This document shows positions 16,383-58,290 of a stretch of DNA of 64,000 nucleotides, piece after piece. The DNA lies in the NCBI GenBank assembly GCA_001683735.1, contig LUGG01000005.1, positions 1,798,001 through 1,862,000 of the forward strand. The letters are read 5' to 3'. Below the pieces are notes generated by a model, which worked only from the letters and a program-made list of their open reading frames with translations, did no database searches and was not told the DNA's origin. Position 1 is the first letter of the stretch; the number at the start of each line of letters is the position of its first letter. The DNA comes from Grifola frondosa. Taxonomy: Eukaryota; Basidiomycota; Agaricomycetes; Polyporales; Grifolaceae. Position numbers and translations under genes: made by a program.

Positions 16383-16569
16383 TGTCACGCACCAAATGTG
16401 TTTGGTACCTGGACATGGCAAAATAACATCAATTTTGCACATTCTGTCATCAGTAAATGATATGGCATGGGACATCAAATCGGGAATATGGTCACGTGCT
16501 TATACTCATAAATAAAGCATAATTCTGTTCGGCTATTTCCAGGCATTCTTGTTCCCGTCCATCACCATC

Positions 16570-17013
16570 ATGCAGGCAATTTTGTACCCTTGTGATACTC
16601 AGGTTCCTTACTATCGGGTGCATCGACAGACTCATAAACATATCCTCATCCTCGATCCAGTCCAGGATCATCTTATCCCAATCTATTTTTCTGGTCCCCT
16701 TCGTCTTTTGGGACCCAACATCAAGTTTACAGGACGAATCACCCGCATCCTTCAATTTCAGGAGACTCGAGTCATTGTTGCTGTGGAGCATTACACAGGC
16801 ACCCAGGAAGTTGCAGTGGGCATTCCCTATTCCATTCTAGCCATGTTTGAATGGTTGGATGCATGGATCATTTGGAACATTGCTCATCGCAGAGGAATGT
16901 TGAAGCCGAACAGCGATATAGTCGAATTGCCGAAGAACATGCTGCAAGCAGGAGATGCGAGACTGATGGATGACTTTCTACTGATCTATGAGGGACATGG
17001 ATGGCAGAATTAG
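16570..17013 (+). CDS. LTR-encoded 147-residue protein, copy in E2 5' LTR
   Basis: Unknown function. The ORF lies wholly inside the LTR, behind a CATAAATA box ~60 bp upstream of its ATG. The protein has no signal peptide or evident membrane helix. It is rich in Ile, Leu and aromatic residues, with strings such as LRLLGPNIKFTGRI, VAVEHYTG, FEWLDAWIIWNIAH and DARLMDDFLLIY. The same frame is open in the E2 3' LTR (one difference, K to E) and in a diverged fragment at 62978-63421 (about 74% identical, no gaps). Many differences to the latter are third-position, as expected under purifying selection. I match it to no known family. Confidence 0.65.
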   Translation: MQAILYPCDTQVPYYRVHRQTHKHILILDPVQDHLIPIYFSGPLRLLGPNIKFTGRITRILQFQETRVIVAVEHYTGTQEVAVGIPYSILAMFEWLDAWIIWNIAHRRGMLKPNSDIVELPKNMLQAGDARLMDDFLLIYEGHGWQN

Positions 17014-17656
17014 GTCACATGACAATGTATCCATTTTCCCACCAATCAGCACTCAGCTCACATTATTTCAAGTCAAAATATGCATTTTTGTTAATGACAT
17101 TACATAAGAATGATTATAAGAAGGACCTACATGACTTGAGAAGTTACAATGGAAGGACCTAGACAAGGCCCAGACCAGTCTACATGTTCTAGCTAAGTCC
17201 CAGAATGGCCTAGCCCTTGTCAGAAACTCAATACGACCTAGGCTTGTCAAAAGACACCCTTAAATTTGGAGTGTTATCAGTTGTAACCCCATTTTGCAAG
17301 CCCGGACAGGTCCAGATCAATCACATGACCACCTGGATCATGAGCCCAGACCATCTAGACAAGGCCTAGATGTGGAGATAAGGAGAAAAGTAGGAGATAT
17401 AAATAGAATTGAAAGATTTAGTGTAGAAATAAGCTTAGTTAGGAAAACTTTGTACTGAATTCGTAGTTTTGATACTTTTTAACATAGTTTAGAATGTTCC
17501 ATGACTAAGACATGATCAGATGACCTCAGATGAACTCTGATTTGTCAGCACTAATTCAGAAAAGCCAAGTCAGGACCAATCAGGATTGACCATGGATAAT
17601 CATGATCAGTCGTGATTAGTCAGGATTTGAGGTGGATTAGTAAGGCAACCCAGAAA

Positions 17657-17723
17657 TGAGTCAGGGGGAGTCAGAGTGAGTCATTTCCATGGAATGTTCT
17701 GGAATTTCCTCAGGGTATAAAAG
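17657..17723 (+). promoter_or_regulatory. LTR-A core promoter: TGAGTCA trio, heat-shock-like element, TATA
   Basis: TGAGTCA at 17657, GGAGTCA at 17667 and TGAGTCA at 17677 are spaced exactly 10 bp, one helical turn. GAATGTTCTGGAA at 17692-17704 is a three-unit GAA-nn-TTC-nn-GAA heat-shock element. TATAAAAG follows at 17716-17723. The identical array is in the 3' LTR (34801, 34811, 34821; 34836-34848; 34860-34867). Confidence 0.6.
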
Positions 17724-18410
17724 CAGGCCAAACTGCCCCCCTGAGAGCAATATAGTTTTTATCCACTTTCACCCCAGACATCTGTGTGCCCTCTCCTTCT
17801 TTGTGAATTTCACCTTGGATTGTCACCTGACCAGACTGAGCTCTGGTAGTACAAGTCCAAGAAGAGTATCTCAAGGACCCTACAAGGAAAGTAGGATAGG
17901 TTGAGTACTCTGCAGTAGAATATTCTCAGTAGCAAGACAGCAGATTGCGGCGTAAGGAAAGTGCAAGTTTAAGTTCGAGACAAGAAGTTTCTTGGGCTGT
18001 TTGACTGTTCAGACAAGTGCTCTGAAAGTACAGACCCAGGCAGGAAGACTCAAGGACCCTACAGGACAGTAGGCTAGGTTGAGCACTCTCACAAGACCAG
18101 GAATTGAAGTCGCAAGTGTTAGCAAGTAATATCCCTGACATTCATTTGGAATCTACGTACCTGAATCTTATATATTTAATAAATCTCGGATTTCCGGACT
18201 CGGCTGAGCCTCTGACCGGAAAAGTAGGAAAACCCGTCACGCTTGGTGCACATTGAAGTATTGAAGGCTTTTAAATTTCTTGCTGCTTATAATTCAGTTT
18301 TACTGAACCCCTTGCTTGAAAAATAAATCCTTTTGTGAACAAATTCTTGTGTTAGAAATTTATTCTCAGACAGGAACTCTCACGTACGTCAATAACCCCT
18401 TACAAAGAGT

Positions 18411-18547: not shown

Positions 18548-19490
18548 ATGTACACGGATCATCGTGATCCCCCGAATGAACGTAGTCCATTATCAGATAC
18601 TCAGTTTTCCATAAGTGGATTCAGTAGTAGGTCTGCAATGGATATGCCAGTTGAAGGAACAAAGAATGCCCCAAAGCTATTCAGAGGAGAGGCAGCAGAA
18701 GTGCACCCATTTCTACGCCACTTTGAAAAGCTGGCAGCTCTTCATCACCTGACCACAGCAGAAAAATGCGAATTTGTCACAGATTACTGCTCGCGAAGGG
18801 TCAGAGAGACGATTGAAGGATTTTCAAGTTACAGAGAAGGCAATTGGGATGAGTTACGATCTAATGTGATCATATACTTCAATGCAGATCTGGAGTCTAA
18901 GAGATTCAGACTTAAGGACCTCCAGGCATTTTCAGCCAATTTAGAAGAGAGTCAATTCATGAATTGAAAGATTGGAGACGATACCTTAGGAAATTCATCC
19001 GAATTGCAGGATGGCTCCGAGGTCAGGCAAAGCTTACTGAGGATGATTATGCATATTACCTGTGGATAGGATTACCTCCTTCATTCAGAAAAAGATTGGA
19101 AGTTAGGATCTTAGCTCTCCACCCTATGCATGATATGTCAGAACCATTCAGCCAGCTATGATTCAGCAAGCAGCTGAAGGATTGTTAGGCCCAGATCGTT
19201 TGACACAGAAAGACTTGGAACTGAGGATATCTTCAAGCATGATAGCAGGATAGAAGATTCAGATGATGAAGCAAGTGATGATGAAAGGATAGCCCCAGCT
19301 AGGAAGGCTAGGAGACAGCCAGCAAGAAAATCAAGAGTTAAGCCAAAGAAGGTATATGATGAAGTGACACAGATGATGATGAAGAGGTGACTCGGCCAAT
19401 GGAGCCAGCACCTAAGTTGAAGAAGAGCATTGGAAGAGTCGTGAAGGAATCCCAAAAGAACAGAGGAATCAGAAATAGATAAGCTAGTTA
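18548..19490 (+). pseudogene. E2 gag, frameshifted
   Basis: Capsid-type Gag beginning at ATG 18548. The segment MDMPVEGTKNAPKLF...FLRHFEKLAALH...KCEFVTDYCSRRVRETIEGF and FNADLESKRFRLKDLQAF aligns residue for residue with E3 Gag (52401 on). The frame breaks near 18945, resumes as DWRRYLRKFIRIAGWLRGQ (18967 on), breaks again near 19150, and runs through an acidic, Lys/Arg-rich linker to the next ORF. E3 is open across the same stretch, so these look like indels, either decay or assembly error. Confidence 0.75.
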
Positions 19491-19495
19491 AGCAA

Positions 19496-22400
19496 ATGAC
19501 TAAGCTGTCTGTAAACGATCCGCAATATGGGATTTTTTTCTTGAAGGCATCCAATATAAACCCATTGGTTACAAGATGCTTGCCTCTTCCCCATATTAAT
19601 CAGGCAGCACCCTTTGGAAGACCAGCTCAGCCAGCAGGACCACCAAGATTTGAAAGACCAGATCCTAATCGGTTCTCACCTGGAAGATTCCCACCACCAT
19701 CAGGACTAGGATGTTATGGATGTGGAGAGCAAGGACATATCATGGGAAATTGCCCAAAGATCCAGGATTTGATGTCCAAAGGACATCTCCTTAAGGATTA
19801 CCGAGGACGATTTACTGATAAAAATGGAAACATTATTCAGCGAAATGGAGCAGAGAACTGGGTGCAAGCCATCAAGGATGCTGTGCCTCAGGTTCATTTT
19901 GTAACCTATGGGAAGGCTCTTGTAGAGTCAGAAGATGAATCAGATGCAGAGGTTATGGTTTTACCAGCTGAGAAGACTTCAAAGGAAGCTCGGACCTATC
20001 GAAAGCAGCCATATGAAAGTACTAGACCATCTCTTCCCAGTAAAGGAAAAGAGAAAGAGACTCCACCACATACTACTGCTTATAAGCCACAGCCATCAGC
20101 ATCAAGTTCATATCCCCATTTCAAGGAACGTCCTTTCGAAGTCCAGCAAAGATCATTCAATCCTGATAATGATGCGGAAATGGTTGATGACCCAGCAATG
20201 GCTCGCATGCTTCGAAATCAGCCAGATAAGACTGTAGAAAAGAACCGAGGACCAAACAAGACATCAGCAATTAGCCAGGAAGTGGACGCATCAAATATTA
20301 TGAATAGGATTCTGAATATTCCTTTCACAATATCAGTTGGAGAACTATTTGGAGTATCCAAGGAGGTGTCACAGCAATTGCAGAATGCCTTGAAGGTCAA
20401 GAAGATAGAACCAGGGACAGGACCAGCAGCACACTTGGTATCTGGATTTACAGCAGATTTAATCTCAGGAATAAATGAGACCCGATCACCTCTTATCCGG
20501 TTGACCATGGACTGCAATGAGAAGCCAGTGAACTTTATCATTGACACAGGATCCCAGTTGAATATAATCAGTGAAAGGATCTGGAAGTCTATTGTGCAAA
20601 GGCCCATGGACAAGTCCCGTGCTATTAGCATAAATGATGCAAATGGTGGCACAGGAGACTTACTAGGTCTTGTTAGTGATGTACCTCTGAAATTTGGACA
20701 CATAAACACTAGGTTTAATGCATATGTGGCACCTAACCCTCCATTCGAAGGATTATTAGGTAGGCCATGGCAACGAGCCTTTGGTGTAGGGATACGTGAG
20801 AGGGATGAAGGAACTTTCCTTACCTTCAGAGGGCCTCCAGGACATCCTGATTCTGAAGTCTTTGTGTCATCACATGAAGACATAGGAAGTGCAGCCTCAT
20901 TTGCAACTATTGTTGAGGAGAAAGCTCCAAAGCAACCCGAGACATTGTCCAGGATTGAGTCAGTAGCTGATAATGATGATAGTGACAAGAGCTCTGAGAA
21001 GAGTGTCAAGAGTGAAGAAGAGTACAGTTCAGATATAGAGGACTATACAGAGACAGATTCAGATGAAGAAAGTACAGATGCAGATGAAGAATCAGATAAG
21101 GAGAGTCTAGCCTCAGAATTCAGGAAGATTACAATAGGGAAGAAAGCCAATGGGCAGCTGAATCATATGTATCGCCGGCAAAGCCGAGAGATGGCCATGT
21201 ATCAGTCTCTGTTAACCACCCAGATGGAGGACTTTAGAACAGACAAGACAAGAAAGATTGGAGCAAGTACCTTGATGGCAGACAATGGTGTAGAATTCAT
21301 AAAGGATGAAATGGCAGATTATGGGGCTCAGACCTTTCTTATTCGGGATGCGCAATTCTTCTTCCGAGATGTTCATTGCAATGGACATGCCATTGTGCAA
21401 TTATACCCGCACTCTAGAAAGAACATGGGGAAACTTGGTCGTTTACTTGGACGACCTGTTGATACTCATCTAATGATGTTAACTGCTGAAGGACTGAAAC
21501 CTGACGTAGTTCCCCAAGTAGCTCAAGTCGGACCTACCTGTTATGATGGATTGACAATTGGACCATGGTCTCACCTTGATCCTATGATTGTACTTCACAT
21601 GTATGCAGGACACACAGTTATTCCATTTGTAGTTGATACGGGATCACAAATCGACTGTGTAAATGCAAATGTATGGAAGTCAGCAAGAGGAACAAGTCGT
21701 GAAATAGGAAAAGGAGTTATCATTAGGGACATATCAGGAAATCCCCTTACCTGTATTGGAGCTTGGGATGTAACCCTGACCATAGGCCATGTTGATACTC
21801 AAGCAACCTTGTATATCATAGAAGGTTTAGCTGTACCAGGACTCCTTGGCCGACCATGGCAATGGAAGAATGAATTCAGCCTAAGTCACAAACCTGAAGG
21901 AGTGTTTGTAGGACTCCGAGACTATCATGGAATCAACACTTATGAGATATTGATTACAAGCCCAGGAATTCAGAGAGCTGTACTTGATCGGACTTTACGA
22001 CTTTGTGCATTATTATCAGCAGAACAAAAAATAGAAAAATCAAATACCACAGAAGCCCAAAGGTTGGAACGGCAGTTATCAGATCTACTGAAACGAGATT
22101 CAGAAGAGATACCTGTTTATCGATGGGAAGCCACAGATGGTGCACAATTAGTAGGACCAACAGATCTCAATGACCCTGGATGCTGGGACGATGACTCTAA
22201 TGATCCAGCAGAATCTGAAGATTTGAAGGAGTACACTGAATATGATAGATGGGTTGAAATGGAGAATCAACGATTATATCACAACATGCGAACAACCTAC
22301 CAATTTCAAGTAGGACAAGCAGTAGATGATGTTGCTTTTCCAATAACCAACATTTCAGTGAAGAATGCTCGGACAATTCAGGAAGAGCCTAACTCTAACT

Positions 22401-22729
22401 TACCAAGTGTTAAAGAGCAGCAATATTTATTACAAGATGTCAAAATGACTGTTAATGGAAAACGACGTGAAGGTCATGCAGTTCTTCATATGGTATTCAC
22501 CCAAGAAAACTTGCGAAAGTCTCAGAAAGATACTGTAGAAGCCAATACATCAGAAATCATTGTGGAAGACCCTAAACCAGATCAAAACAAGACACGGGAT
22601 CAGGGTTCGCAAACTAATGATCAAGAATGTACCAATGATATTGATCCAATAGTATGCTCAGAAGAAGACCTATACGTCAAATGGAAACAGGAGCTAGGAA
22701 CTAATGATTGGGATTTGGACAACCTTTAA
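19496..22729 (+). CDS. E2 Gag-protease polyprotein with two retropepsin-like domains
   Basis: 1077 codons continuing Gag. Order: CCHC knuckle CYGCGEQGHIMGNC (~19712-19753); a KDYRGRFTDKNG segment; an acidic, Ser/Pro-rich linker; protease-like domain 1 with IIDTGSQLN (DTG 20543-20551) and GLLGRPWQ (~20752-20772); a Ser/Asp/Glu-rich linker; an FLIRDAQFF...GHAIV module (~21331-21400); protease-like domain 2 with VVDTGSQID (DTG 21635-21643) and GLLGRPWQ (~21841); and a second LLQDV...GHAV module (~22429-22490). Retropepsins normally work as dimers of one domain, so two domains in one chain could form an intramolecular pair. E3 shares the plan. The ORF ends cleanly before the cargo block. Confidence 0.8.
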   Translation: MTKLSVNDPQYGIFFLKASNINPLVTRCLPLPHINQAAPFGRPAQPAGPPRFERPDPNRFSPGRFPPPSGLGCYGCGEQGHIMGNCPKIQDLMSKGHLLKDYRGRFTDKNGNIIQRNGAENWVQAIKDAVPQVHFVTYGKALVESEDESDAEVMVLPAEKTSKEARTYRKQPYESTRPSLPSKGKEKETPPHTTAYKPQPSASSSYPHFKERPFEVQQRSFNPDNDAEMVDDPAMARMLRNQPDKTVEKNRGPNKTSAISQEVDASNIMNRILNIPFTISVGELFGVSKEVSQQLQNALKVKKIEPGTGPAAHLVSGFTADLISGINETRSPLIRLTMDCNEKPVNFIIDTGSQLNIISERIWKSIVQRPMDKSRAISINDANGGTGDLLGLVSDVPLKFGHINTRFNAYVAPNPPFEGLLGRPWQRAFGVGIRERDEGTFLTFRGPPGHPDSEVFVSSHEDIGSAASFATIVEEKAPKQPETLSRIESVADNDDSDKSSEKSVKSEEEYSSDIEDYTETDSDEESTDADEESDKESLASEFRKITIGKKANGQLNHMYRRQSREMAMYQSLLTTQMEDFRTDKTRKIGASTLMADNGVEFIKDEMADYGAQTFLIRDAQFFFRDVHCNGHAIVQLYPHSRKNMGKLGRLLGRPVDTHLMMLTAEGLKPDVVPQVAQVGPTCYDGLTIGPWSHLDPMIVLHMYAGHTVIPFVVDTGSQIDCVNANVWKSARGTSREIGKGVIIRDISGNPLTCIGAWDVTLTIGHVDTQATLYIIEGLAVPGLLGRPWQWKNEFSLSHKPEGVFVGLRDYHGINTYEILITSPGIQRAVLDRTLRLCALLSAEQKIEKSNTTEAQRLERQLSDLLKRDSEEIPVYRWEATDGAQLVGPTDLNDPGCWDDDSNDPAESEDLKEYTEYDRWVEMENQRLYHNMRTTYQFQVGQAVDDVAFPITNISVKNARTIQEEPNSNLPSVKEQQYLLQDVKMTVNGKRREGHAVLHMVFTQENLRKSQKDTVEANTSEIIVEDPKPDQNKTRDQGSQTNDQECTNDIDPIVCSEEDLYVKWKQELGTNDWDLDNL

Positions 22730-23033
22730 AGGAGGAGTACCCAAGTCACCTGTGAAGAGAATGTAGGAATAGTCAGGATATCAGATCAAGATAAAGAAAG
22801 AAAACCCAGAAATAATTTGAAACAGGTTACCAGAAAGAGAATGCAAGCATTGATCAGACCGGATTCATATTGGATTGTGAAAAGTTACAAAAACAAGAAA
22901 TAGCAGATATTTATAGATCCAGGATTTGTATACGAACTATTCTAGGTGCTAGCAGGGAACACACTCATCATCCTAGAATATCGAGGAATCAAGTTAGATA
23001 ACTATAAAAAAAAAGAAGGCGAGAATAACTCAC
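22730..23033. other. Start of E2 cargo, no clear gene
   Basis: AT-rich sequence following the polyprotein stop. It would contain the 3' end of the antisense gene whose splice signals begin at 23028. No plus-strand ORF is credible. Confidence 0.4.
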
Positions 23034-23653
23034 GGCAGTTGAACTGGGGGAGTGTCCGTATTCCACACTTGATGGTCACCACACCCACTCCCTGACCAAT
23101 GATATGTTAGAAAAGAAGATGTTCAGAAAATAATTTAAAGAAGACTTACGTCGATAGTTTCAAAGCAACGATTTTTCCGGTCGAACGGTCCGTCTTCAAA
23201 GAAGTTAACAGACGAGTTGATCTGAAATGTAGATTAACATTAGCCATCGATCAAGATCGAAAATGATCGAAAGGAACTTACTTCGTAAGGCGGCATATGG
23301 ATGTAGAGGTTCAAGAAGGGATGAACCAAAAGGAAATCCCACTGCCATTATATAGGCCAAGCCTTGACAGCACTTACCTCATAGAATTTGATGGATGCAG
23401 CAATGCTAACCGAGTCGTTAAGGTGGTAAACAAAGTTAATATTACCAGATCAGATTAGGAAATCAGGAACCAAGTAACAGGACAAGGAATTGGGTTTGAT
23501 GTATATACCAGGGGCGCAACAGAATATTGATGATAGTACCCGATAGGGCAAGAATGTTTGCAGAACATACTTAGGACTACTCCGTGAATTTCGGACTCGG
23601 AAATGCAGGTTGCAGCATAAGCCATGAGAGCTATGGGCAATGCATACAGTCAA
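23034..23653 (-). CDS. Antisense spliced gene in E2 cargo, 3' exons
   Basis: Unknown protein on the strand opposite to gag and pol. Exons read by splice signals on the minus strand: 23378-~23450 (NINFVYHLNDSVSIAASIKFYE, donor GTAAGT), 23282-23341 (WDFLLVHPFLNLYIHMPPYE), 23150-23221 (INSSVNFFEDG... to FETID) and 23034-23091 (VVTIKCGIRTLPQF...). Introns are 36-58 nt. The last two exons match, in order, intron position and approximate length, exons 57983-58057 and 57872-57927 of E3. A stop near 23450 separates the first listed exon from more open sequence upstream, so one error or break is likely there. No domain recognised. Confidence 0.5.
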
Positions 23654-24628
23654 TTCAGGTAGTCAGTATTGTGTCTGAACTCTTGAGAACCCAGTGGTAA
23701 ACCAGGAAAGCGTCGAGGTCAATGTATATTCAAATTAAAATGGCACCCATTCACAGGAAAGAAAATTAGGAAATTAACTGGTAATGAAGATATTAACTTG
23801 GTCCACAAGACTTGTTAGCAAGGCTCAGAAAAGTAATTTCAGTTTACTTACCATGTATCGACTTGAGGTCAAATCAAGCTCACATTGTGCTGAACCATCC
23901 AGTAGTGATTAGAAGCTTAAATAATTGGCAGTTGGAAGAAAACCCAAAGTTATTAACGAACAGGATCCAATTGTAAAGCCACGAAATCTTACTTGATTGT
24001 CTTTGTTTTTGAATACAAATGTATGTATTCAAACAAAAAAGCAATCAGGCAAAGAGTCATGAATCAAGTCACGATTGAGAGTTTGTCGGAGTGCACTGTC
24101 AGCTCAGCTGATAAGGCCGCGAACTTCTTAGAATAGTATTTAGGAACAGATACCCAACAGGAAAATCTTGGTCATATTGGACACCGGATTGTATTATGAT
24201 GTTAACCAGGATGCAAGATATAGACACAGGAAAGATCAATTACGTATAACAGGATGAACATTACTGGACTAGATTCGAGCCAGAATCATGTATAGTTCAG
24301 CATACACCATGAGAGCGTGGCAAGCATGAGCCAAATCACAAGTCAGAATGTAAAACGAGAAACAGGAAACTCAGGGACAGGCAAGCTAGGGCATCGAGGT
24401 CAATGCACATCAAATAAAATACAATCACAAAGGCAATAGACCCAGATGGAAATTTGGGATAAGCACGAAGATCATAGATTCATTTGGCTACATCATGCAC
24501 GACCGAATTGTCGATGACGTGCAAGTTTAAACGGAAGTTTAAAAACTGCAAGCAAGCAAGATACAATTTGAATCAAGAATTGCGGATACATGTGCGGATA
24601 AGAAAACCGTAGCTACAGTAATAACGAG

Positions 24629-24640
24629 ACTGTGGGGCGG
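24629..24640 (+). other. Internal copy of the polypurine-tract motif in E2
   Basis: ACTGTGGGGCGG is identical to the core of the 3' polypurine tract at 33514-33525 but lies mid-element, where AT-rich cargo turns GC-rich. E3 has the same word at an equivalent place (59265-59276). It is either a central polypurine tract or a relic of an older element end. Confidence 0.5.
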
Positions 24641-26940
24641 TTCGAGATTGGGTCAAGAGACCATACAGCAAGATAAAGATTAATAATAAATTAGTATAAT
24701 ATGGAAAGTCTGACGGAGACGGAAGTTAGTAACGATAGAAGACAGTTATAACGAGAGAACGTACTAAAGACGGGGATGGCCGAACGCGACCGGGTCGCAA
24801 CGAACGCGTTGAGGATGGCATCGATGGACGCAGACGAAGAGGTTGGCCTGTGAGGATAGCTGTTAGCAGACAGGCCGGACGAGAGACGAGTACCGTACAT
24901 ACCTAAGAACGGATCCGGCAGTCATGATTAGACTGCGGGGCGACGCATGGTCCCCGACGATCCACGGCGAGGAGCCGCGGATACGAGCGAGGGCTCGGAA
25001 CGCGACGATGTGCCCAGTTGCATGGCCATTGGGCCAGAGAGAAGAGCATGCGGCGTGCGCGCGTAACAGCGCACGAGGCCCGCAGCGCGTGCTAAATGAG
25101 AGCGTACAGGACGAGATAATAAGAACATATGTATGTGGGAGGTAATAAGAGACGGACATACTGATAGATGTAGAGCTCAACGAGTGTACCATGCCCGAAC
25201 CGGCCGGTAGGGTAATGCACGACGCTGAGAGGTCAGACGTCAGCATAGCCCGTACAGAGTGTAGAAGAAGGAAGAAACTCACCGAAAAGAGATTGAGTGC
25301 GACGTGCCCAACGGCTCCGAACGCGAAGCATGCAGTGCGGCGGACGCGCGCGCACCAGCACAACCGAACGTTCGAGCAGTCCGCGGTGTGGCCAGCACAC
25401 GAGAGAGTCGAGTATGGAATGCCCGAGCAGCGTGAACGTTCACGCACTCGGAGGATATCCCGGCCTAATGAGATAAGAAAGTCAGCGGCAAGCATAGAAT
25501 GATGAAGAGTACTTAGGAGAGTATTACGCTCACCGGGTACGGGGACGTACAAACCGTACAATGGGAGGAGAGACGTTGAGGAGTGCGCCCGCATAGTTGC
25601 GCGGTGCGCCGTCGCAGAGAAACCGTTTGAGCGCAGCGCAACCTGGTCAATAAGGATCAGCGACGAATGAACGGTTAACGGGAACGGCATACCGATGACT
25701 GGCCCGTTAGCTACCTGACGTCGAGGCTAGTGCGCTGAGAGGAACAGAATGTCAGCCAGTAAGAGAGAAATGGGATCGAAGGACGCGCCTACAAAGAATC
25801 GAGCTCATTGAGTATGGGAATTTGAAGACCGTACAGCGGAAGGAGCGGTCGAGAAGGTGCGCGCCTGCACAGCTGAGCAATGAGCCGGTGCGAGAGTTCG
25901 AAAAAGCGCACCATGCCCTGGTAAAGAAAGGCCAGCAGCATGCAAAGAAACCAAAGAATTAATGTCGGACTCACCAGAACAGCGAGGAACGCGGACGCTG
26001 CCCAGTGTCGGGGCCGCGCGGCGCGAACGTTGAGCGTACCCCCCGGCATGGTAGGTCCGCTGGATCAAGAGCCAGAGATGGAAATATGGAAGGAAAATGG
26101 AAGGGAACTTGATAAAAACCCGAGCCCGCCTGAATGGGTTTAGCGGAGAATCAGCGCGTTTTTATAGGCCGCAGATAAGGTACACGTGAGGACTTACCAA
26201 GCAGAAGACGAGTCAAGACGAGTCAGAAAGACTCACGAAGAGTCAGAAACCCAAAAATTTGGGGACATGGCCAAGCTTTCTGCTTGGTCAGCCAAAGAGA
26301 CACTTTGGGGAGAAGAGACTTGAGCCAGAGAGATTGGAAACAATGTATAGGACTCACGGAAGTAGCCCACGCAGCGCTGCGCGGTGAAGAACGCGGCATC
26401 CGGTGCACATAGTGCTACTGAGCGTAGTGTGTGGAGCTGGAAGATTGGACACAATCGAGCCACAAGAGGGGGAGCCTAGATAGAAGATAAGCTGTCAGAT
26501 AAGGAGAATAGGGATAGAGCCGCGGCACCAAAGAACGGCCGAGAATTGGTCAGATGAGGTGTGGGGTGAGACGGATGAGTCCAGCAGGAAGAAGGATCTG
26601 CAAAAAGGATAGGAAGTCAGACCACTTTCTCCCCAACAAATCTCAGCGCGTGACTCACCGCTGCCAAGGGATGAGTAAGCGCGACCATAGGAGTAAACCG
26701 AGGCCAGGAAATGAAAGTGTGGGGTAAACAAAGGAGGGCGACGAGGCCTCCGCGAGACGCTGAAGATCCGTAGGAATAGGAGTATCGGGAGATAGAGCAT
26801 CACGGAAGCATCACAAGATAAGGCGGCCCCGATGAGGCACACCGAGAACGCGATCGACCTGCGTAGAATAGACCGAGTAAGAAAGAATATACAGTACAAG
26901 TGTACCGCGTAAGGACTGCTAAAGATCAGTGATAGAAACG
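24641..26940 (-). other. GC-rich antisense cargo of E2
   Basis: Base composition changes abruptly to GC-rich. Minus-strand donor-like sites (complements ACCTAAG near 24899, TCACCGAAAAG near 25279, TCACCGGGTACG near 25530, TCACCAGAACAG near 25973, TTACCAAGC near 26179, TCACCGCTGCC near 26656) suggest more antisense exons. Two exon-like units, LLPLYGLYVPVP (~25540-25590) and LLPLYGLQIPI (~25810-25860), are duplicates of each other. I cannot assemble a full reading frame or name a product. Confidence 0.35.
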
Positions 26941-26986
26941 TTCGTTATGTGAGTATAATAAATCCGGAAAGACTAGAAGGAAAAGG

Positions 26987-26994
26987 TATAAATA
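26987..26994 (+). promoter_or_regulatory. TATA box of the plus-strand cargo gene
   Basis: TATAAATA lies 42 bp before the ATG at 27036 that opens the longest plus-strand cargo ORF. Confidence 0.5.
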
Positions 26995-27035
26995 CGAGGC
27001 AAAGGAGCGGACAAAATTTTGCACTCCCACTTACC

Positions 27036-28299
27036 ATGACGAGTCCCTTCCTGTTCCGAGCAAGCACGCCGCCGACGCCCCACCTACGATGGGACCGAAT
27101 CTATCAGTTCCACCAGCGGATGTACGGCTTACCTCTGCTGCACGCGACAAGCGACCCGGTCTTGACCGCGTCCGAACTGCACTACTGTCCGATGGGTATA
27201 GCCCCCTGGTCGAAGAACCCGCAGCGTCCGGATCCGACGGCCATGTTCCTCCTCAGGGACGCCTACATTCGGGACCCTAGCGGTGCGATCCATGGGGACG
27301 CCGTCATCATCTTCGATGGCACGGTTGACGAAGAACACCCGCGCAACCCAACGCCGAACGAAGAGAACATCCCGGACTACCCGCCTGACGATGCCGTTCC
27401 ATCGGGCCCGCTCGTAGGATCCGTGATGGTGGACCGCGCCGTTCAAGTCGATCTGCCGCGCGATGACTATACGCCGCCGTACGCCCTGCGCTCGCCGATA
27501 TACATACCGCGTTCGCCGTCCTGTACGCCTCCGACGACGACGGCCACTAGGTGTGCGTCCACGGTCAACGATCGGTACCGTTCGCTCGTCGAAGTCGCGG
27601 TGGCTGCCATAAAGATGCAGCGCACCAACGACGAGAAGGAGTTTGCCGAGTTGGATCTTGAGTATATGGAGACCGACCTGAGAGGAGACAGAGAGAGCGA
27701 GGAGATACCTGTGGAAGAGGAGGTGAGGTTGAACACATCGCAAGTTGACGGATGGTGTGTACTCACCGAATATCTGCGCGAGCAGCGTTCCATCGCAGGA
27801 CGCGCATCCGAGGCCAGCAGCTCCCTTACTGATATTGAAAGTGTCCCGACGACGGACGAAGCAGCTCGCCGTCCCGAGCGTGAGACGTCCCCGGATCCGC
27901 GCAAAAGGCTCCGTGTCCGCGAGGATCCCCGAATTATAGGGAGACGCGCCGTACGTACCCTTTGTTCGGCCAGAGACGCAGACTAAAGAAACGTATACAA
28001 TCAGCACTTGAAGAACAGAGCAAGAATCCGGTCGTCGGCATACCTTTGACCCGCGTAGCCGTCCTCGAAGAAGATGACCGTCGCACTCTTGAATCCGTCC
28101 TCAGCGTACCCGCGCCGAGTGGGAGATTGAGGACTGCCGGTTTGTGAGCGACGTTATCGCCGCCGTCACGCTCGCGCTCCATTCGATCGGCACAGGCGAA
28201 GGAGGCCGACCGAACATGACCGCTGGACGCGGAAGGAAGAGGTGCCCCGCTTGGAACGGCCGAGGGGTAGAAGATGAGCGCGAGGCGCAGCGAGTGTAG
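27036..28299 (+). CDS. Plus-strand cargo gene of E2, unknown product
   Basis: From ATG 27036 an open frame runs to 27986: MTSPFLFRASTPPTPHLRWD..., then a Pro-rich region with repeated acidic patches, an EKEFAELDLEYMETDL helix-like segment and a basic tail (RKRLRVREDPR). A GTACGT donor near the end could splice to further open sequence ending EWEIEDCRFVSDVIAAVTLALHSIG... at 28299. No catalytic domain is recognised. GC content is far above that of the flanking gag and pol, which suggests a separate origin. The minus strand is also open over part of it, but the TATA and start context favour plus. Confidence 0.45.
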
Positions 28300-29222
28300 G
28301 AACCCGATGTCCGTTTACTAACGAATGAATATCTGAAGAAAGCCAGAACATGTCAGTATGCAAATATGTAGTTACAGACTCACCTGTATGCCGGGGGGCG
28401 AAAATACGAGCTAAATTCTTAGACGAAAACTCTGGATTATGTGTGAGCAGTAAAATCAGGATTGAGATCAACGAGCAAGCGCAGAAACACGCCGACGAGA
28501 GTGCCAGCGCAGGCCGTTAAGCACCCGGATAGGGCCTGGGAAGGAACTAATATGGCCAGCGCGCGAGAATGTCGAAGCAGGGCAAAGGGGACATTGAGAA
28601 GTTAGATAGGGCCCGAGAGAGAATCATCCGGCGCGCGAAGGCAGGCCAGGAACGAGCGCGCGAAAAGAATCCAGCAGGAAAGAAGGGAAGACGAGACAAT
28701 AAGGAAACGAGCGCGAACCAGATGCCAACACAGCAACGCGTCGCGCGTTGAAGTCACATGTTGCACTTGGAGAACAGGCGCGCGGGCAGCTCGGAGAGAG
28801 AGACGCCCGTAAGCGCTCAAGAGAGACGCGCCGCGTTGAGCGCGCCGCACAGTCACAGCGGTGACTTCGGTGTCACCTCGGCGAGTGACTGGCGCTAGTC
28901 ACTTCCGCGCGCGCTAACCGCGCAATCAAGACTCAAGACAGTCAATACTGATTATCTAGAGTACCAGAGGTGGAAATTCTTGATATTAAGACCTTCCATA
29001 GGTCGAAATATCATGAGAGTTAATTGCTACAGAATTACAAGAGGTAATATCAAGTAATTGAAGCAAGAACAAGGTTAGAATCAGGAAGATTCAGACTTTC
29101 TCCTTGTTACAAACCATGCAAGAATTGTCAGGCCATTTTCTGGAGGACCTGGAACCCATCTAGTAGGACCTAGAACCTTGAGAGATGACTCAGAGAGAGC
29201 CTAGGCCCAGGATACTCCAAGC
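28300..29222. promoter_or_regulatory. Cargo-to-pol junction with GTGAC inverted repeats
   Basis: Two hairpins, GGTGAC/GTCACC (28859-28876) and AGTGACT/AGTCACT (28884-28903), sit at the point where GC content falls back to AT-rich. A short ACTTCCGCGC word follows and recurs at the matching position of E3 (~62248). This is a plausible divergent promoter between antisense cargo and pol. No supported gene lies here. Confidence 0.4.
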
Positions 29223-29948: not shown

Positions 29949-30064
29949 TCGTCCGTAACTGACGTTAAACTAGACATATCTGGATCATAGTTTGGTGTAT
30001 TCCCACCCCCAGTTTTCAGAGCCCCATTTATTGTTATCTCAACCAGCCAACACTCAGTGAAGTC

Positions 30065-33000
30065 GTGAAGCAAGCCAAGGATACTAAAATGAGTTGTATA
30101 CCATCCATTAGTATCTCGCTTCCCGCAAACAGCGTAAAGTCACAGAATTACCTAGCAGAACACAGAATGACACAATCAATGGATTGTGCGAGCAATGCAG
30201 TATATGTATATAAGCCAGTGGACCGAAGGGTGAAACCAGTCCCCGGTGTCTTTCCAGAAGATGCACGTGTAAAACGATGCTTCCCGGAGAACCCGCTAGA
30301 CTCATTATCACAGCTACCTTTTAACCCACCAGACTTTGTACCCACAAAGAGACTGACTACAGAACGATTAGAGCAGATAAAGATAAATGAAGAAGGATTT
30401 CTATGGCCTGAAGAAGAAAAATTATTTAAGCATATAATTCAGATAAATGAAAGAGTTCTAGCCTTTGATGAAACTGAACGAGGAACATTTCGAGAAGATT
30501 ACTTTTCCCCTTATATAATTCCGGTAATACCACATGTACCATGGGTTGATAAGAATATCCCCATAGCACCAGGGATCCGAGATAAGGTGGTTAACTTATT
30601 ACGAGAAAAGATTGAAGCAGGAGTGTACGAGCGATGTCAATCATCTTATAGATCAAAATGGTTTTGTGTGTTGAAGAAAAATGGCAATTTAAGAATTGTC
30701 CATGATCTTCAACCACTTAATGCAATCACAATTCGAGATGCAGGTGTGCCCCCGATACTGGATGCATTTGTGGAACCATTTGCAGGAAGACAGTGTTATT
30801 CAGTGTTTGACTTATTCTGGGCCTTTGATGCCAGAAAAGTCGATATTACCAGCAGAGATATGACAGCATTTCTTTCACCACTTGGACTGTTACGAATTAC
30901 ATCAATGCCAATGGGCTTCACAAATTCTCCAGCAGAATTTCAAGCATGTATGACATTTGTATTACAAGAGGAAATTCCGCATATAGCAAATGTGTTTATT
31001 GATGACTTACCCATCAAAGGTCCTAACACAATATATCCGGATAAAGAAGGAAATCCAGAAGTTCTATCACAAAATCCTGGTATTCGAAGATTCATATGGG
31101 AACATGCGCTAGATGTTCATAGGATAATGCATAGAGTTGGTCAAGCTGGACTTACATTTTCTGGACCCAAGTCCCAAATTTGTAAGCCACAAGTAGTAAT
31201 TGTTGGACAGAAATGTACACCGGAAGGAAGAATGCCAGAAGATGATAAAGTATGCAAGATACAGAACTGGCCCACTCCTCGCTCAATTAAGGAAGTCAGA
31301 GGATTCATGGGATTATGTGGAACAGTTCGAATTTGGATAGAGAATTATTCTGAACAAATTCGGCCAATGAAAGAATTAACTTTTAAAGGAGCCGAATTTT
31401 CATGGGATTTACGTAGGCAAGCATCTTTCGATACTCTTAAAGAATTGATATCATCAGCACCTGCCCTTCGTCCAATTAACTATCAGTCAGAGAATCCAAT
31501 TATCTTATCAGTAGACTCTAGCAAGTATGCTGTTGGATTTATTCTCTCACAAATTGATAATGATGGAAAGAAGAGGCCAGCTCGATATGGTTCTTTACCA
31601 ATGAAGGAAACAGAGTCAAATTACAGTCAGCCAAAGTTAGAGCTTTATGGTTTATATAGGGCATTGAGGCATTTCAGACTATACTTGGTAGGTGTGAAGA
31701 ACCTCCATGTTGAAGTCGATGCAAAATACATCAAAGGAATGCTAAATGAACCCGACTTGCAGCCTAATGCGACCATTAACCGTTGGATTCAGGGAATCCT
31801 TCTGTTTGACTTTAAATTGATTCACGTGCCAGCAGCACAACATAAGGGACCAGATGCCTTATCACGAAGAGCACTAGGAGAAGGAGAAATAATCGAAGGA
31901 GACGATGATGAATGGTTAGACAATATTGCTTTGTTTGTCAGGCTTTTGCAACCAGAACAGGGTAAGAAAACCTATGGACCATTTCCAGAGACAATTGAAC
32001 CAGACACAAGAGTGTTTATTTCAACTACAACATCTCAGGATATTTCTCTTCGACAAATCAGAGATTTCTTGGCTACTCTGGAAATGCCTAGCTTTCCCAA
32101 CCCAGCTGCAAAATTGCGATTTGCTAGAAGATGCAAGCATTATTTCGTGAAAGAGAATATGATGTTCAGGAGACAGAAGAATGGAATACCCACACGTGTA
32201 GTGTTAGAAGCCAATGAGAGAATTGCAATTCTCAAGCAAGCACATGATGAACTAGGACACCGAGGAGAGTATGCTACCTTTGAAACTGTACGATTACGCT
32301 TCTTTTGGCCATTTTATCGGGCAGATGTGCATCACCATGTGCAATCATGTAAAGAATGCCAAATGCGAAGCATTCGGAAGGTAGCAATCCCTCTTCGAAT
32401 CTCCGCACCAGCCACCTTATTTACCAAAGTCTATATGGACATAATGTTTATGCCCACAGCTGGTAAAAAGACATGTATAGTGGCTTGTCGAGATGACTTG
32501 TCAGGGTAACAGAAGCACGAGCCTTGAATAGTACATCCTCAGAATCAGTAGCAAAGTTTTTCTGGGAACAGATAGTCTGTAGATATGGGCCACAGGTCAA
32601 GTTACCACAGATAATGGACCTGAGACCAAAGGGGCATTTGAGAAATTAGTTCTCAAATATGGTATTCCTCATGTACGAATATCTGCCTATAATTCTCGAG
32701 CTAATGGAGTAGTTGAACGAGGACATTTCATTCTGAGGGAAGCATTGGTTAAAGCCTGTGAAGGAAGAATATCCCAATGGCCAGATCTCTTGTCACATGC
32801 TTTATTTGCAGATCGTGTTACCACAAGACGAGCCACAGGATTCAGTCCTTACTATCTATTACATGGAGTCCATCCAGTATTTCCAATGGATTTGCGAGAA
32901 GCCACCTTTCTGGTAGAAGGATTTCATAAAGACATGTCTCATTCAGACCTTCTAGCCTTGCGAATACGGCAACTAGAACGTAGACCAGAAGATATAGCCC

Positions 33001-33526: not shown

Positions 33527-35547
33527 TGTCACGCACCAAATGTGTTTGGTACCTGGACATGGCAAAATAACATCAATTTTGCACATTCTGTCATCAGTAA
33601 ATGATATGGCATGGGACATCAAATCGGGAATATGGTCACGTGCTTATACTCATAAATAAAGCATAATTCTGTTCGGCTATTTCCAGGCATTCTTGTTCCC
33701 GTCCATCACCATCATGCAGGCAATTTTGTACCCTTGTGATACTCAGGTTCCTTACTATCGGGTGCATCGACAGACTCATAAACATATCCTCATCCTCGAT
33801 CCAGTCCAGGATCATCTTATCCCAATCTATTTTTCTGGTCCCCTTCGTCTTTTGGGACCCAACATCGAGTTTACAGGACGAATCACCCGCATCCTTCAAT
33901 TTCAGGAGACTCGAGTCATTGTTGCTGTGGAGCATTACACAGGCACCCAGGAAGTTGCAGTGGGCATTCCCTATTCCATTCTAGCCATGTTTGAATGGTT
34001 GGATGCATGGATCATTTGGAACATTGCTCATCGCAGAGGAATGTTGAAGCCGAACAGCGATATAGTCGAATTGCCGAAGAACATGCTGCAAGCAGGAGAT
34101 GCGAGACTGATGGATGACTTTCTACTGATCTATGAGGGACATGGATGGCAGAATTAGGTCACATGACAATGTATCCATTTTCCCACCAATCAGCACTCAG
34201 CTCACATTATTTCAAGTCAAAATATGCATTTTTTGTTAATGACATTACATAAGAATGATTATAAGAAGGACCTACATGACTTGAGAAGTTACAATGGAAG
34301 GACCTAGACAAGGCCCAGACCAGTCTACATGTTCTAGCTAAGTCCAGAATGGCCTAGCCCTTGTCAGAAACTCAATACGACCTAGGCTTGTCAAAAGACA
34401 CCCTTAAATTTGGAGTGTTATCAGTTGTAACCCCATTTTGCAAGCCCGGACAGGTCCAGATCAATCACATGACCACCTGGATCATGAGCCCAGACCATCT
34501 AGACAAGGCCTAGATGTGGAGATAAGGAGAAAAGTAGGAGATATAAATAGAATTGAAAGATTTAGTGTAGAAATAAGCTTAGTTAGGAAAACTTTGTACT
34601 GAATTCGTAGTTTTGATACTTTTGTAACATAGTTTAGAATGTTCCATGACTAAGACATGATCAGATGACCTCAGATGAACTCTGATTTGTCAGCACTAAT
34701 TCAGAAAAGCCAAGTCAGGACCAATCAGGATTGACCTGGATAATCATGATCAGTCGTGATTAGTCAGGATTTGAGGTGGATTAGTAAGGCAACCCAGAAA
34801 TGAGTCAGGGGGAGTCAGAGTGAGTCATTTCCATGGAATGTTCTGGAATTTCCTCAGGGTATAAAAGCAGGCCAAACTGCCCCCTGAGAGCAATATAGTT
34901 TTTATCCACTTTCACCCCAGACATCTGTGTGCCCTCTCCTTCTTTGTGAATTTCACCTTGGATTGTCACCTGACCAGACTGAGCTCTGGTAGTACAAGTC
35001 CAAGAAGAGTATCTCAAGGACCCTACAAGGAAAGTAGGATAGGTTGAGTACTCTGCAGTAGAATATTCTCAGTAGCAAGACAGCAGATTGCGGCGTAAGG
35101 AAAGTGCAAGTTTAAGTTCGAGACAAGAAGTTTCTTGGGCTGTTTGACTGTTCAGACAAGTGCTCTGAAAGTACAGACCCAGGCAGGAAGACTCAAGGAC
35201 CCTACAGGACAGTAGGCTAGGTTGAGCACTCTCACAAGACCAGGAATTGAAGTCGCAAGTGTTAGCAAGTAATATCCCTGACATTCATTTGGAATCTACG
35301 TACCTGAATCTTATATATTTAATAAATCTCGGATTTCCGGACTCGGCTGAGCCTCTGACCGGAAAAGTAGGAAAACCCGTCACGCTTGGTGCACATTGAA
35401 GTATTGAAGGCTTTTAAATTTCTTGCTGCTTATAATTCAGTTTTACTGAACCCCTTGCTTGAAAAATAAATCCTTTTGTGAACAAATTCTTGTGTTAGAA
35501 ATTTATTCTCAGACAGGAACTCTCACGTACGTCAATAACCCCTTACA
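33527..35547 (+). repeat. E2 3' LTR (LTR-A)
   Basis: Near-identical to 16383-18404. Observed differences include one A/G substitution in the encoded ORF and several single-base indels in homopolymers. It carries the same dual promoters, hairpin block and ORF. Confidence 0.9.
33714..34157 (+). CDS. LTR-encoded 147-residue protein, copy in E2 3' LTR
   Basis: Same protein as at 16570-17013 with a single residue change (Lys to Glu in GPNI-FTGR). From the 3' LTR its promoter would fire toward the host DNA as well as the ORF. Confidence 0.6.
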   Translation: MQAILYPCDTQVPYYRVHRQTHKHILILDPVQDHLIPIYFSGPLRLLGPNIEFTGRITRILQFQETRVIVAVEHYTGTQEVAVGIPYSILAMFEWLDAWIIWNIAHRRGMLKPNSDIVELPKNMLQAGDARLMDDFLLIYEGHGWQN

Positions 35548-50507: not shown

Positions 50508-52276
50508 TGTCGTGCACCAATCTGGATTGGTACTCGGACATGGCAATTTCATTGACCAGTGTCTGCACTACCCACACACGTGAAAGCATGCAGGGAATGG
50601 AACGATAGCATGGAATTGGGCAGCCCAGACAGCGCACTGGATGACAGGAGCATTGAAGCCGGATAATGACTATGTTGCATTCCGATCACACACGGTCATT
50701 TTCCCAGGAGACATTCGATTGTGGCAGCAGCAGTTGCAGGGAGTCTAGGGACAGTCAAGAAGGTCAAGGTCATAATACATCACGGCTTATCCCCTTTCTT
50801 CCCTTTCCTTATCCGTCACATTCATCTCCCATCACATATTGCACTTCGCTCAGTTCACCTCTTGTAATCAGAATTGTGTCAGCAAAGACGTACTGTGGTC
50901 ATTTCTGCTTAGTTGAGCAGACTTGTGGCCCCTTGCTGATGAATATCCTGGAATATCCTGGAAGGACAGAAGGTCCTGGAATTTCCCAGAAGATTATAGT
51001 CTTGAAAGAAGACTTTAATCGAAAATTCCCCTTCCAGATTGTCCTGGAAGAATACAGAAACCTGGAGAATCTGCTAGAATATTTCAGTAGACTCCAGAGT
51101 ATCATAGAATCATGAAGAACACCCTAGGAACTCATGGAACCTGGGAGAATTCTCCAGAAGGAGAGAGACCTGTGTAGAATGTGCTAGCAGGTCAAGGAAG
51201 CTTCCAGCAACTTCCAAATGCAATTCGTCAGCAGAAAACTTGGTGGATTGGTAAGCATTTGGAGTGAATTGGTAAGCAGAAGGAGCATTAGTCAGCCATA
51301 GAATAGAACTTTCCAGAAACATTCTGTAGAGTATATAAGCTGGAGTGAACGAGGGGCCCCATCATCCATCTTTTGATCCATCCATCTTTTGATCATCCAT
51401 CCATCTTTGATCATCCATCTTTTTCTTATCTCTTGGATCCCCCCCCAAAGCTCTCGTTCCTCAGCCAACCTTAGCTTTGAATCAGAATTTCTTTCTCTAA
51501 CTTTGAGGCCCACTTGAGTGTGTGGTCTAGGCTTACCTGTTTGTAAAGTATTCCCTGAATTGTCAACTGTCCAGGCAAGAGATTCTGGAAGCACAAGTTC
51601 AGGCAGGAAATATTGGACCTTTATTAGGACAGTGAAGTAATCCTGTCACAAAAGGGGCATATCACTTCCCTAAATTGTCAACTGTCCAGGCAAGAGATTC
51701 TGGAAGCACAAGGTTAGTAGGAAGATTGGTAGACTTTTGTTAGGCAGTGGAGGCAATCCTGTCATAAAGGACATCAGGTACGCACCGTCAGTTTGAGAAA
51801 TTGGTTGTTTGTATTGGGTTTGGGAAGTCCGTCTTGTAAGTGATTACGGAGTATAAGTCTCTGGAAAGAAGTCCAGGAGCATTCCTAATCAGCAAGCGGA
51901 ATCAGTATTGAAGTCAAAGTACTGCAAGAAGGCAGTAACTTTGAAAAGAAGTTAGAAGCATACTAACGAGGCAGACTATTTGAGTCTAGCCTAGTCTTTT
52001 TCTTGTTCCCCACAGGTATACTGCAAGTAACCAAGTACCGTAGGATACTTCACAGAGCATCTTCAGAGTCTCCTGTGATATAGCGTATCTTCGCGCAACC
52101 GGACTCGACTGAGCCTCTATCCGGAAAAGTAGGAAACCCCGTTACGCTCGGTGCACCCGTCCTATCCGGGAAATAACCCCTCGACTATAAAACAAAATAT
52201 TACTCTAGTCAGATAGCCTTTTGGTTGTTTGGTGAAAAGTGTGTTGTTTCATACCGATCGCCGGAAGAATACGACA
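50508..52276 (+). repeat. E3 5' LTR (LTR-B)
   Basis: 1769 bp, TGTCGTGCACC...ATACGACA. TATATAAG (51332-51339) follows TTCCAGAA (51311-51318), a two-unit heat-shock-like element. Further GAA/TTC pairs lie upstream (GAAGCTTC 51197-51204). A CATCCATCTTTTGAT-type minisatellite (51362-51425) lies after the TATA, and the hairpin block shared with LTR-A is at 52099-52156. Confidence 0.88.
50666..51115 (+). other. 149-codon ORF in LTR-B
   Basis: Open in the 5' LTR and identical in the solo LTR, but a 1-nt deletion in the 3' LTR (near 63776) breaks it. It has no similarity that I can see to the LTR-A protein and no TATA close upstream, so coding is doubtful. Confidence 0.25.
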
Positions 52277-57667: not shown

Positions 57668-57871
57668 ATTCTTCCTCTCCAATTCAAGCGATATTGTGTT
57701 TGGAAAGAATCGAACAGGTTAAATCAGGCAATGGACAATCGATCAGGTTCAATGATGTATCTATCTAATTCTAGGTACATCATTCTCACGTGCGACGGAC
57801 GGAAAACACCGTTGCAGCACTATGGAAGCGAAGGATAAGCAGTATTTATTCAAGGGCGAAATTGGACTTAC

Positions 57872-58057: not shown

Positions 58058-58290
58058 CTAGGAACAAGTCAGGTTAATAATGCGGGAAGGGGGAAATGCG
58101 TGATCGGAAGTCCCACCTCTATAGGCATTGGTGGTGATGGAAAGGAAAGAAGAAGACTAAACGGCGATCAAGGCTTGTGCCCAGCTATAAAAGAAATTCT
58201 GGATGACATCTTTACATCATTTATTTTGATGTGTACTCACGTCAAGGACAATGACGTAAACCGGTCTGATAGATGCTCGAGAAGCCTATC

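What the first reader, a model, noticed from the sequence alone, without database searches (positions are those of the whole stretch)
22730..29222. Antisense, intron-bearing cargo gene conserved in two different giant Gypsy elements
Between the protease ORF and pol, E2 (and E3 at 57668-62560) carries a multi-kb block on the opposite strand with fungal-type introns. Two consecutive exons match between elements in order, phase, length (72/58 nt versus 75/56 nt) and intron position, while their sequences have diverged strongly. A spliced gene antisense to the genomic RNA keeps its introns through retrotransposition, as with HTLV HBZ-type antisense genes or introns of retrocopied cargo. That makes it a real candidate for an undescribed element-encoded function.
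Basis: partly seen in the sequence, partly recalled or inferred. Interest (0 to 1): 0.88.

Follow-up and report, generated by a model that had tools for sequence, protein, structure and literature searches.

The report
Antisense spliced microgene in mushroom retrotransposons
Large retrotransposons in a mushroom genome carry, written backwards relative to their own genes, a tiny gene split by three introns that would make a protein of about 58 residues; selection has kept it across several element families, and in one family it sits inside the terminal repeats, so it is probably a working part of the element, with a job still unknown.

Summary
It belongs to a four-exon, three-intron antisense gene (here 'a1') encoding 58-59 aa, with intron phases 0/0/2 and a TATA core 56-62 nt before the ATG. 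It occurs in five element groups of this genome (Grifola frondosa, by protein match): E2-like, E, E3, F, and G, where it lies inside the LTR and persists in solo LTRs. Exons are under purifying selection (dN/dS 0.20 and 0.10); introns are diverged. E3's copy is intact. E2's copy has 1-nt deletions that may be assembly errors. E3 has no recognisable pol yet keeps a1.

The 'multi-kb antisense block' is wrong as stated: E2 has two small antisense genes (a1; a2, about 68-81 aa) and a sense gene (s1, about 400 aa), and E3's long antisense ORF lacks coding constraint. Most likely a1 is an independently transcribed accessory gene acting in trans on the element; that function is inferred. Antisense accessory genes are known (brtn, plant aORF-3R, HBZ), so this is a new variant. 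The LTR-resident, multi-intron microgene is the surprising part. No RNA evidence was available.

The parts
16383..18404 (+). E2 5' LTR (TGTCACGC...CCCTTACA)
   Evidence: 99.7% identical to 33527-35547 (1 mismatch, 5 gaps); 4-bp flanking repeat CCGT and PBS TTGGAGCCCACCGCGAGGG read from the sequence printed
19445..22729 (+). E2 gag-protease ORF
   Evidence: Pfam gag-asp_proteas (2 stretches), DUF4100, zinc knuckle below cutoff
23348..23354 (-). a1 TATA core (CCTATATAATGG), E2
   Evidence: 58 nt upstream of the ATG; TATA at -56 to -62 in 36 of 37 a1 models (the four E3 copies read by eye; L040 lacks it)
23282..23296 (-). a1 exon 1, E2
   Evidence: ATGCCGCCTTACGAA then GTAAGT
23150..23221 (-). 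a1 exon 2, E2 (72 nt; 75 nt in sister copies)
23034..23091 (-). a1 exon 3, E2 (58 nt; 59 nt in sister copies)
   Evidence: the automatic model used a later donor (62 nt) for this copy
22942..22972 (-). a1 exon 4 with stop TAG, E2
25975..26049 (-). a2 exon 1 (second antisense gene), E2
   Evidence: 57-nt intron (56 in L018) with the same sites in 17 of 21 E2-like and E sequences; dN/dS 0.15-0.31 for L002/L023 and L023/L020 in this frame, none for L002/L020 exon 1
25789..25917 (-). a2 exon 2 with stop, E2
26158..26168 (-). TATA-like element CCTATAAAAACG upstream of a2, E2
   Evidence: pattern CCTATA[TA]AAA found in 12 of 21 sequences; L027 of group E has GGGCTATAAAAATG
26987..26994 (+). TATA element (GGTATAAATA) of sense gene s1
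   Evidence: identical in all five sequences aligned: E2, L005, L018, L023, L027
27036..28270 (+). s1, sense gene; the window copy reads open only to 27986, intact sisters reach about 28270
   Evidence: third-position excess on the + strand, intact ORFs in L004, L018, L033; dN/dS 0.27/1.38 for L018 vs L004
29280..29561 (+). s2, small basic sense ORF (93 aa)
   Evidence: read; similar to E3 62663-62788 and to L033:5858-6136
29969..32509 (+). E2 pol, first part (RT, RNase H, integrase H2C2)
   Evidence: Pfam
33527..35547 (+). E2 3' LTR
50508..52276 (+). E3 5' LTR (TGTCGTGC...TACGACA), followed by the same PBS
   Evidence: ends read; 99.0% to 63611-64000 over the 392 bases inside the window
54473..57667 (+). 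E3 gag-protease ORF
   Evidence: Pfam Asp_protease_2
58186..58189 (-). a1 TATA core (TTTTATAGC), E3
   Evidence: 61 nt upstream of the ATG (read by eye)
58117..58128 (-). a1 exon 1, E3 (MPIE)
57983..58057 (-). a1 exon 2, E3 (75 nt)
57872..57927 (-). a1 exon 3, E3 (56 nt)
57786..57819 (-). a1 exon 4 with stop TGA, E3
   Evidence: sister L011 has indels here

Best explanation
SHOWN: a1 is a gene of the retrotransposons themselves, antisense to gag, with four exons, three conserved introns and a TATA core at a fixed distance from its ATG. It encodes a 58-59 residue protein whose amino-acid sequence, but not its silent sites or introns, has been held by selection between divergent element groups. 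In E2-like, E, E3 and F elements it lies downstream of the gag-protease ORF; in G it lies within the LTR, upstream of the LTR's own sense TATA, and at least two solo LTRs keep it in canonical frame. Because it is read from the opposite strand, sense splicing cannot remove its introns from the genomic RNA. INFERRED: it is transcribed by its own promoter independently of the LTR-driven genomic RNA, and its small, perhaps beta-strand-rich product acts in trans as an accessory protein that modulates the element's own expression or Gag assembly. In principle its dose follows copy number and solo LTRs. Retention in the pol-less E3 family points to Gag, LTR transcription or the host rather than to reverse transcriptase or integrase.
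For: Exon structure and protein in 38 models from 41 entries (39 distinct copies); 17 of the 38 (16 distinct copies) are intact with canonical lengths of exons 1-3. dN/dS 0.16/0.80 (L002 vs L027) and 0.18/1.80 (E3 vs F); intron mismatch 61/177 and 62/157; the other antisense frames give ratios of 0.85-2.81 with stops. TATA at -56 to -62 in 36 of 37 models. Twelve of 60 columns invariant over ten chosen proteins from five groups. LTR location in G: a repeat of about 1.47 kb with near-constant ends in 8 copies, 4-bp duplications exact at 5 of the 8 by my reading, one copy directly before a PBS-like sequence and a gag ORF with DUF4100. E3 retains a1 while 0 of 4 E3 copies show pol. The database model A0H81_13446 joins exons 2-4 identically.
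Against: No transcript, ribosome or protein data were available. The E2 window copy itself is out of frame (possibly assembly error), and 22 of 38 models are not canonical and intact or lean on an altered site. In E3's four copies 0 of 177 exon versus 4 of 166 intron sites vary, only p = 0.054, and indels fall in exon 4 (L011). Pairs of G LTR copies show weak constraint (dN/dS about 0.3-0.9), as expected for dead copies but no support in itself; L004 vs L020 is 0.03/0.08 on few changes. The sense frame whose third positions coincide also gives 0.10 in E3 vs F (one stop) and 0.30 in L002 vs L027 (three stops). Three further loci gave no four-exon model (0 of 3). No structure or homologue suggests a biochemical role; the one structure prediction had mean pLDDT 52.
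Confidence: 0.62

Rival explanations
1. a1 is an element-encoded counter-defence protein that blocks host silencing of the element (RNAi, DNA methylation) rather than a regulator of the element's own machinery.
For: Kept in a pol-less family and in both LTR and internal locations, so its use is not tied to replication enzymes; its own promoter would allow expression when the LTR is silent (inference).
Against: Sequence is strongly conserved, whereas counter-defence proteins often diverge quickly (recalled). No Pfam match above a cutoff and no PDB chain below E 0.03 points to such a role.
Confidence: 0.22
2. The antisense RNA itself is the working product (transcriptional interference or double-stranded RNA with the genomic RNA); the peptide is incidental.
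For: Antisense RNAs are discussed as regulators of other LTR elements (PMC7264820 section 8). The sequence upstream of a1 is also unusually conserved: 5 differences in 100 at 23600-23699 between E2 and L027.
Against: Excess of silent over replacement change in the spliced exons, with introns diverged, and conserved splice sites; an RNA-only role needs neither.
Confidence: 0.08
3. a1 is a captured host gene carried as passenger, with no benefit to the element.
For: Its introns look like ordinary fungal introns, as expected of a captured gene.
Against: No host copy was seen: the hits of three own-genome searches (36, 25 and 43 rows, partly the same places; only the best candidates are scored) fall, by my reading of coordinates, in known element groups except C22:557439, where no four-exon model was found. 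Purifying selection between groups argues for function.
Confidence: 0.05
4. Artefact: chance splice-like signals on a non-coding strand.
For: Only that the E2 window copy is broken.
Against: 0 of 300 shuffles reach the observed score in each of 8 tests; the sense strands score -36 to -60.
Confidence: 0.02

Closest known systems
brtn, additional antisense gene of Boty / BcGypsy1 in Botrytis cinerea (Zhao et al. 2011, not read; seen cited in passages of PMC8365987 and in PMC7264820)
   Same: Antisense gene in a fungal element (named BcGypsy1 in PMC8365987); function unknown.
   Different: PMC7264820 section 5 lists it among ORFs between pol and the 3' LTR; a1 lies downstream of gag-protease or in the LTR, has three introns and encodes about 58 aa. 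No sequence of brtn was compared here.
Plant antisense additional ORFs (aORF-3R: maize Grande gene23, rice RIRE2, Silene Retand, PvRetro13)
   Same: Antisense gene present in most copies of a family; in Grande it is driven by a promoter upstream of the gene (PMC7264820 sections 5 and 8).
   Different: [quoted passage not shown] the word 'intron' does not occur in that review; hosts are plants; no sequence comparison made here.
HBZ and related deltaretrovirus antisense genes
   Same: Antisense, a spliced form exists, independent of the sense transactivator, LTR involved (PMC10186651, passages).
   Different: HBZ is a 31-kDa bZIP protein expressed from the 3' LTR; a1 is a 58-residue protein without a recognised domain. 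Analogy of layout only.
Ty1 p22 copy-number control (recalled, no call)
   Same: A small element-encoded product with dose-dependent self-limitation is one model for the inferred role.
   Different: p22 is a sense Gag fragment; a1 is antisense and spliced. No comparison was run.

Membership tests
Ty3/Gypsy LTR retrotransposon (host element E2) | LTRs with TG..CA ends, target-site duplication, PBS | tested here: met
   E2 LTRs 99.7% identical, TG..CA ends, 4-bp CCGT duplication, PBS TTGGAGCCCACCGCGAGGG (read)
Ty3/Gypsy LTR retrotransposon (host element E2) | Domain order protease, RT, RNase H, integrase | tested here: met
   Pfam on 19445-22726 and 29969-32506
Ty3/Gypsy LTR retrotransposon (E3) | pol present | tested here: not met
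   E2 pol finds nothing at 1e-3 in E3 within the window nor in the fetched stretches L010-L012 (0 of 4 copies); an E2-like LTR fragment sits at 62791-63470. E3 is a gag-protease element, probably non-autonomous
Antisense additional ORF of LTR elements (aORF-3R / brtn) | Conserved antisense coding gene in many copies | tested here: met
[quoted passage not shown]
   a1 is 3' of gag-protease and 5' of pol (E2, F) or inside the LTR (G)
Antisense additional ORF of LTR elements (aORF-3R / brtn) | Sequence homology to known aORF-3R or brtn proteins | not tested
   No sequences of those proteins were in hand
HBZ-type antisense retroviral gene | bZIP protein from an antisense promoter in the 3' LTR | tested here: not met
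   No Pfam family above its cutoff in three a1 proteins; the gene is internal in E2, E3 and F and in the LTR only in G
Protein-coding gene | Purifying selection in the spliced frame | tested here: met
   dN/dS 0.20 and 0.10
Protein-coding gene | Transcribed, spliced and translated | not testable with these tools
   No RNA or protein data; only a database gene model

The most novel reading that the evidence does not exclude
An intron-bearing protein gene lives antisense inside the LTR of a retrotransposon (group G) and, in sister groups, in the internal region. Each solo LTR then disperses a complete, promoter-equipped microgene over the host genome, and the element family can express this trans-acting protein even from copies that have lost everything else, including pol.
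Probability: 0.5. Interest if true: 0.82.

Novelty: new variant of a known kind. Interest (0 to 1): 0.7.

Why it matters
Antisense accessory genes of LTR elements have been described without a known function (PMC7264820). This one is tiny, uniform, present in many copies of one genome, kept in a pol-less family and in solo LTRs, and its introns give a built-in marker of the antisense transcript that cannot be confused with genomic RNA. That makes the general question, what antisense element genes do, directly testable by RNA sequencing, and suggests that multi-intron genes can be carried through retrotransposition by being antisense.

Tried and rejected
A large antisense gene in E2 or E3: rejected. 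E3 ORF 61347-62129 has no codon signal; E2's clearest long coding signal is on the + strand. A 57-nt gap at 27723-27779 in two group-B loci (L006 = L014, L007 = L013) as a lost intron: rejected, the stretch reads as conserved coding sequence in other copies. A first codon scorer gave over-long segments because its expectation was biased; not used for conclusions. Homologues: a1 found only two Grifola proteins at E up to 1 among 60 candidates; s1 none; nothing in viral contigs; no Pfam match to a1, a2 or s1 above cutoff; PDB matches to a1 not significant (best E 0.036). Structure prediction of P0001 was poor (pLDDT 52), so no fold search was run. Two regular-expression attempts to model a2 matched nothing before one worked. 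Single-base indels: L002 and L003 differ by 6 substitutions but 25 gaps over 6.5 kb, so frame breaks in this assembly are weak evidence of decay. An upstream alternative exon, as in the database model P0001, is possible and was not resolved. Whether the TATA-like site at about 60140 (-) in E3 marks an a2 homologue was not resolved.
Full report
What was claimed.

Where it is. The window lies in a 39-Mb genome of 64 contigs. Two database proteins that match a1 are named Grifola frondosa and come from contigs of 497975 and 2010026 bases, the lengths of contigs C25 and C6 here, so the genome is that species or a twin. E2 runs from 16383 to 35547 with LTRs 99.7% identical. Its block 22730-29222 matches 78 places in the genome at 66-100% identity. 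E3's block matches 39 places, eight of them full-length at 94-100% including the window itself, plus one interrupted copy. I call the E2-like subfamilies A-D, then E, E3, F and G.

The antisense microgene a1. Reading the minus strand in aligned copies shows four exons with GT..AG introns of about 46-67 nt. Canonical exon lengths are 15/75/59/31 in E2-like and E copies, 12/75/56/34 in E3 and F, 15/75/59/28 in G; phases are 0, 0 and 2. I gave the model finder 41 entries (39 distinct copies; two loci were entered twice); 38 gave a model, and 17 of these (16 distinct copies) are intact with canonical lengths of exons 1-3. L023, L028 and L032 gave none. The finder may use altered splice sites, so its label 'intact' alone, without the length test, is not counted. 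The E3 window copy is intact (58 aa). The E2 window copy is not: exon 2 lacks three single bases and exon 3 is one base short compared with sister copies. Because L002 and L003 differ by 6 substitutions but 25 gaps, such deletions may be assembly errors.

Is it more than chance? For four loci (E3, F, G, L002) and two reference proteins, 0 of 300 dinucleotide shuffles reached the observed score in any of the 8 tests, and the sense strands scored -36 to -60. G_L045 with reference G is a test with its own family's protein, and L002 with reference E a test with a near family's. Substitutions sit at silent sites: dS 0.80, dN 0.16 for L002 against L027 and dS 1.80, dN 0.18 for E3 against F; codon-position differences 12/6/23 and 7/11/34, introns 61 of 177 and 62 of 157 mismatched. 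The same exons in the two other antisense frames give ratios of 0.85-2.81 and stops. The sense frame whose third positions coincide also gives a low ratio (0.10 in E3-F with one stop, 0.30 in L002-L027 with three), as it must. Ten proteins chosen from five groups share 12 invariant columns of 60. A TATA core lies 56-62 nt before the ATG in 36 of 37 models; the four E3 cases were read by eye, and L040 lacks it. Against: in four E3 copies exons show 0 and introns 4 variable sites (p = 0.054), and indels fall in exon 4 of L011; pairs of G copies show little constraint (0.3-0.9).

Location. In E2-like, E, E3 and F elements a1 follows the gag-protease ORF. In G it lies in a repeat of about 1.47 kb whose ends, TGACAT... 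and ...TGTCA or similar, are near-constant in the eight copies whose ends I fetched. By my reading the flanking 4-bp duplications are exact in 5 of 8, three of four letters agree in one, and two are not convincing. At least those five are therefore solo LTRs, and two of them (L036 and L040) keep the canonical intact a1, L040 without the TATA. One copy, L045, is followed by a primer-binding-like sequence TTGGAGCCCACCGTGAGGGG and a gag ORF with DUF4100; E2 and E3 have almost the same PBS. The LTR's own sense TATA (GTATATAAAGG, L045 about 5258) lies downstream of a1, so the two promoters diverge (my reading).

Other genes in the block. E2 has a conserved sense gene s1 (ATG 27036, TATA 26987): third-position excess on the + strand, intact in L018, L004 and L033 (395-421 aa), dN/dS 0.27/1.38 for L018 against L004, present in further groups, no match in Pfam or the protein collection. 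A second antisense gene a2 has two exons and an intron of 57 nt (56 in L018) in 17 of 21 sequences; L015, L016, L017 and L026 gave none. Three typed examples have 68-81 residues and a hydrophobic stretch (19-residue mean hydropathy 1.4-1.9). Its frame shows dN/dS 0.15-0.31 for L002 or L020 against L023, but L002 against L020 shows no constraint in exon 1 (0.153/0.141), comparisons with E copies give about 0.4-0.7, and L018 and L021 shift frame in exon 2. A small basic sense ORF s2 precedes pol. E3 shows no pol (0 of 4 copies), and the s1 search with L033 listed no E3 place. E3's long antisense ORF is unconstrained (20/16/18).

How it likely works. Shown: a coding antisense gene with conserved splice sites and a conserved promoter-like site, under selection. 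Following from established knowledge: sense-strand splicing cannot remove these introns from the genomic RNA, so they survive retrotransposition. Inferred: a trans-acting accessory protein expressed independently of the LTR-driven RNA. Since E3 lacks pol but kept a1, a role with Gag, LTR transcription or the host is favoured. The only structural hint is a low-confidence three-strand model.

What is known. Antisense additional genes exist in plant elements and in Botrytis Boty (PMC7264820, passages and sections 5 and 8; PMC8365987, passages), and HTLV-1 makes spliced antisense HBZ RNA (PMC10186651, passages). The searches (PubMed Central open papers only; I saw listings) showed me no description of a multi-intron antisense gene in a fungal LTR element, nor of one inside the LTR; subscription papers, including Zhao et al. 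2011, were not read. I therefore file it as a new variant of antisense accessory genes, differing in place, intron number and size.

Limits. One genome only; no RNA; single-base errors in the assembly; selection rests mainly on two independent comparisons of about 58 codons, with exon 2 comparisons among five representative copies that are mostly saturated at silent sites.

Noticed in passing
62791-63470: A fragment 81% identical to the first 680 bases of the E2 LTR lies between the small ORF s2 and the E3 3' LTR, where pol would be expected; E3 looks like a recombinant that lost pol.
   Followed up: partly
42853-44610: An inverted copy of the E3 LTR (98.8% to 50505-52276) lies 5.9 kb upstream of E3.
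   Followed up: no
26987-28270: Sense gene s1 with its own TATA box, about 400 aa, conserved among element groups, no relatives found.
   Followed up: partly
24200-25780: The minus-strand region downstream of a2 seems to hold degenerate repeats of a2-like exons (by eye).
   Followed up: no
23400-23750: Non-coding sequence upstream of a1 is more conserved between E2 and L027 than most of the block (5 differences per 100 at 23600-23699); may be a promoter or an alternative 5' exon.
   Followed up: no
24630, 24940 (window); L033 about 1870 and 6165: Motif CTGTGGGGCG (or CTGCGGGGCG) recurs on the + strand in the block and after s2 (by eye); meaning unknown.
   Followed up: no
L016 and L017 against 22055-29937: Copies look mosaic: identity of L016 to E2 runs 94%, 90%, 83%, 76%, then 94% along the block, suggesting recombination between subfamilies.
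   Followed up: no
22730-29968: pol of E2 starts about 7.2 kb after the stop of gag-protease, so it must be expressed from another RNA or by a long splice; not examined.
   Followed up: no
G000 C18:728979, C31:37963, C1:3620651: Three G-like a1 matches lie about 14 kb from the a1 of F copies at these places; they may be shared duplicated stretches. One was fetched (L062) and gave no four-exon model.
   Followed up: partly
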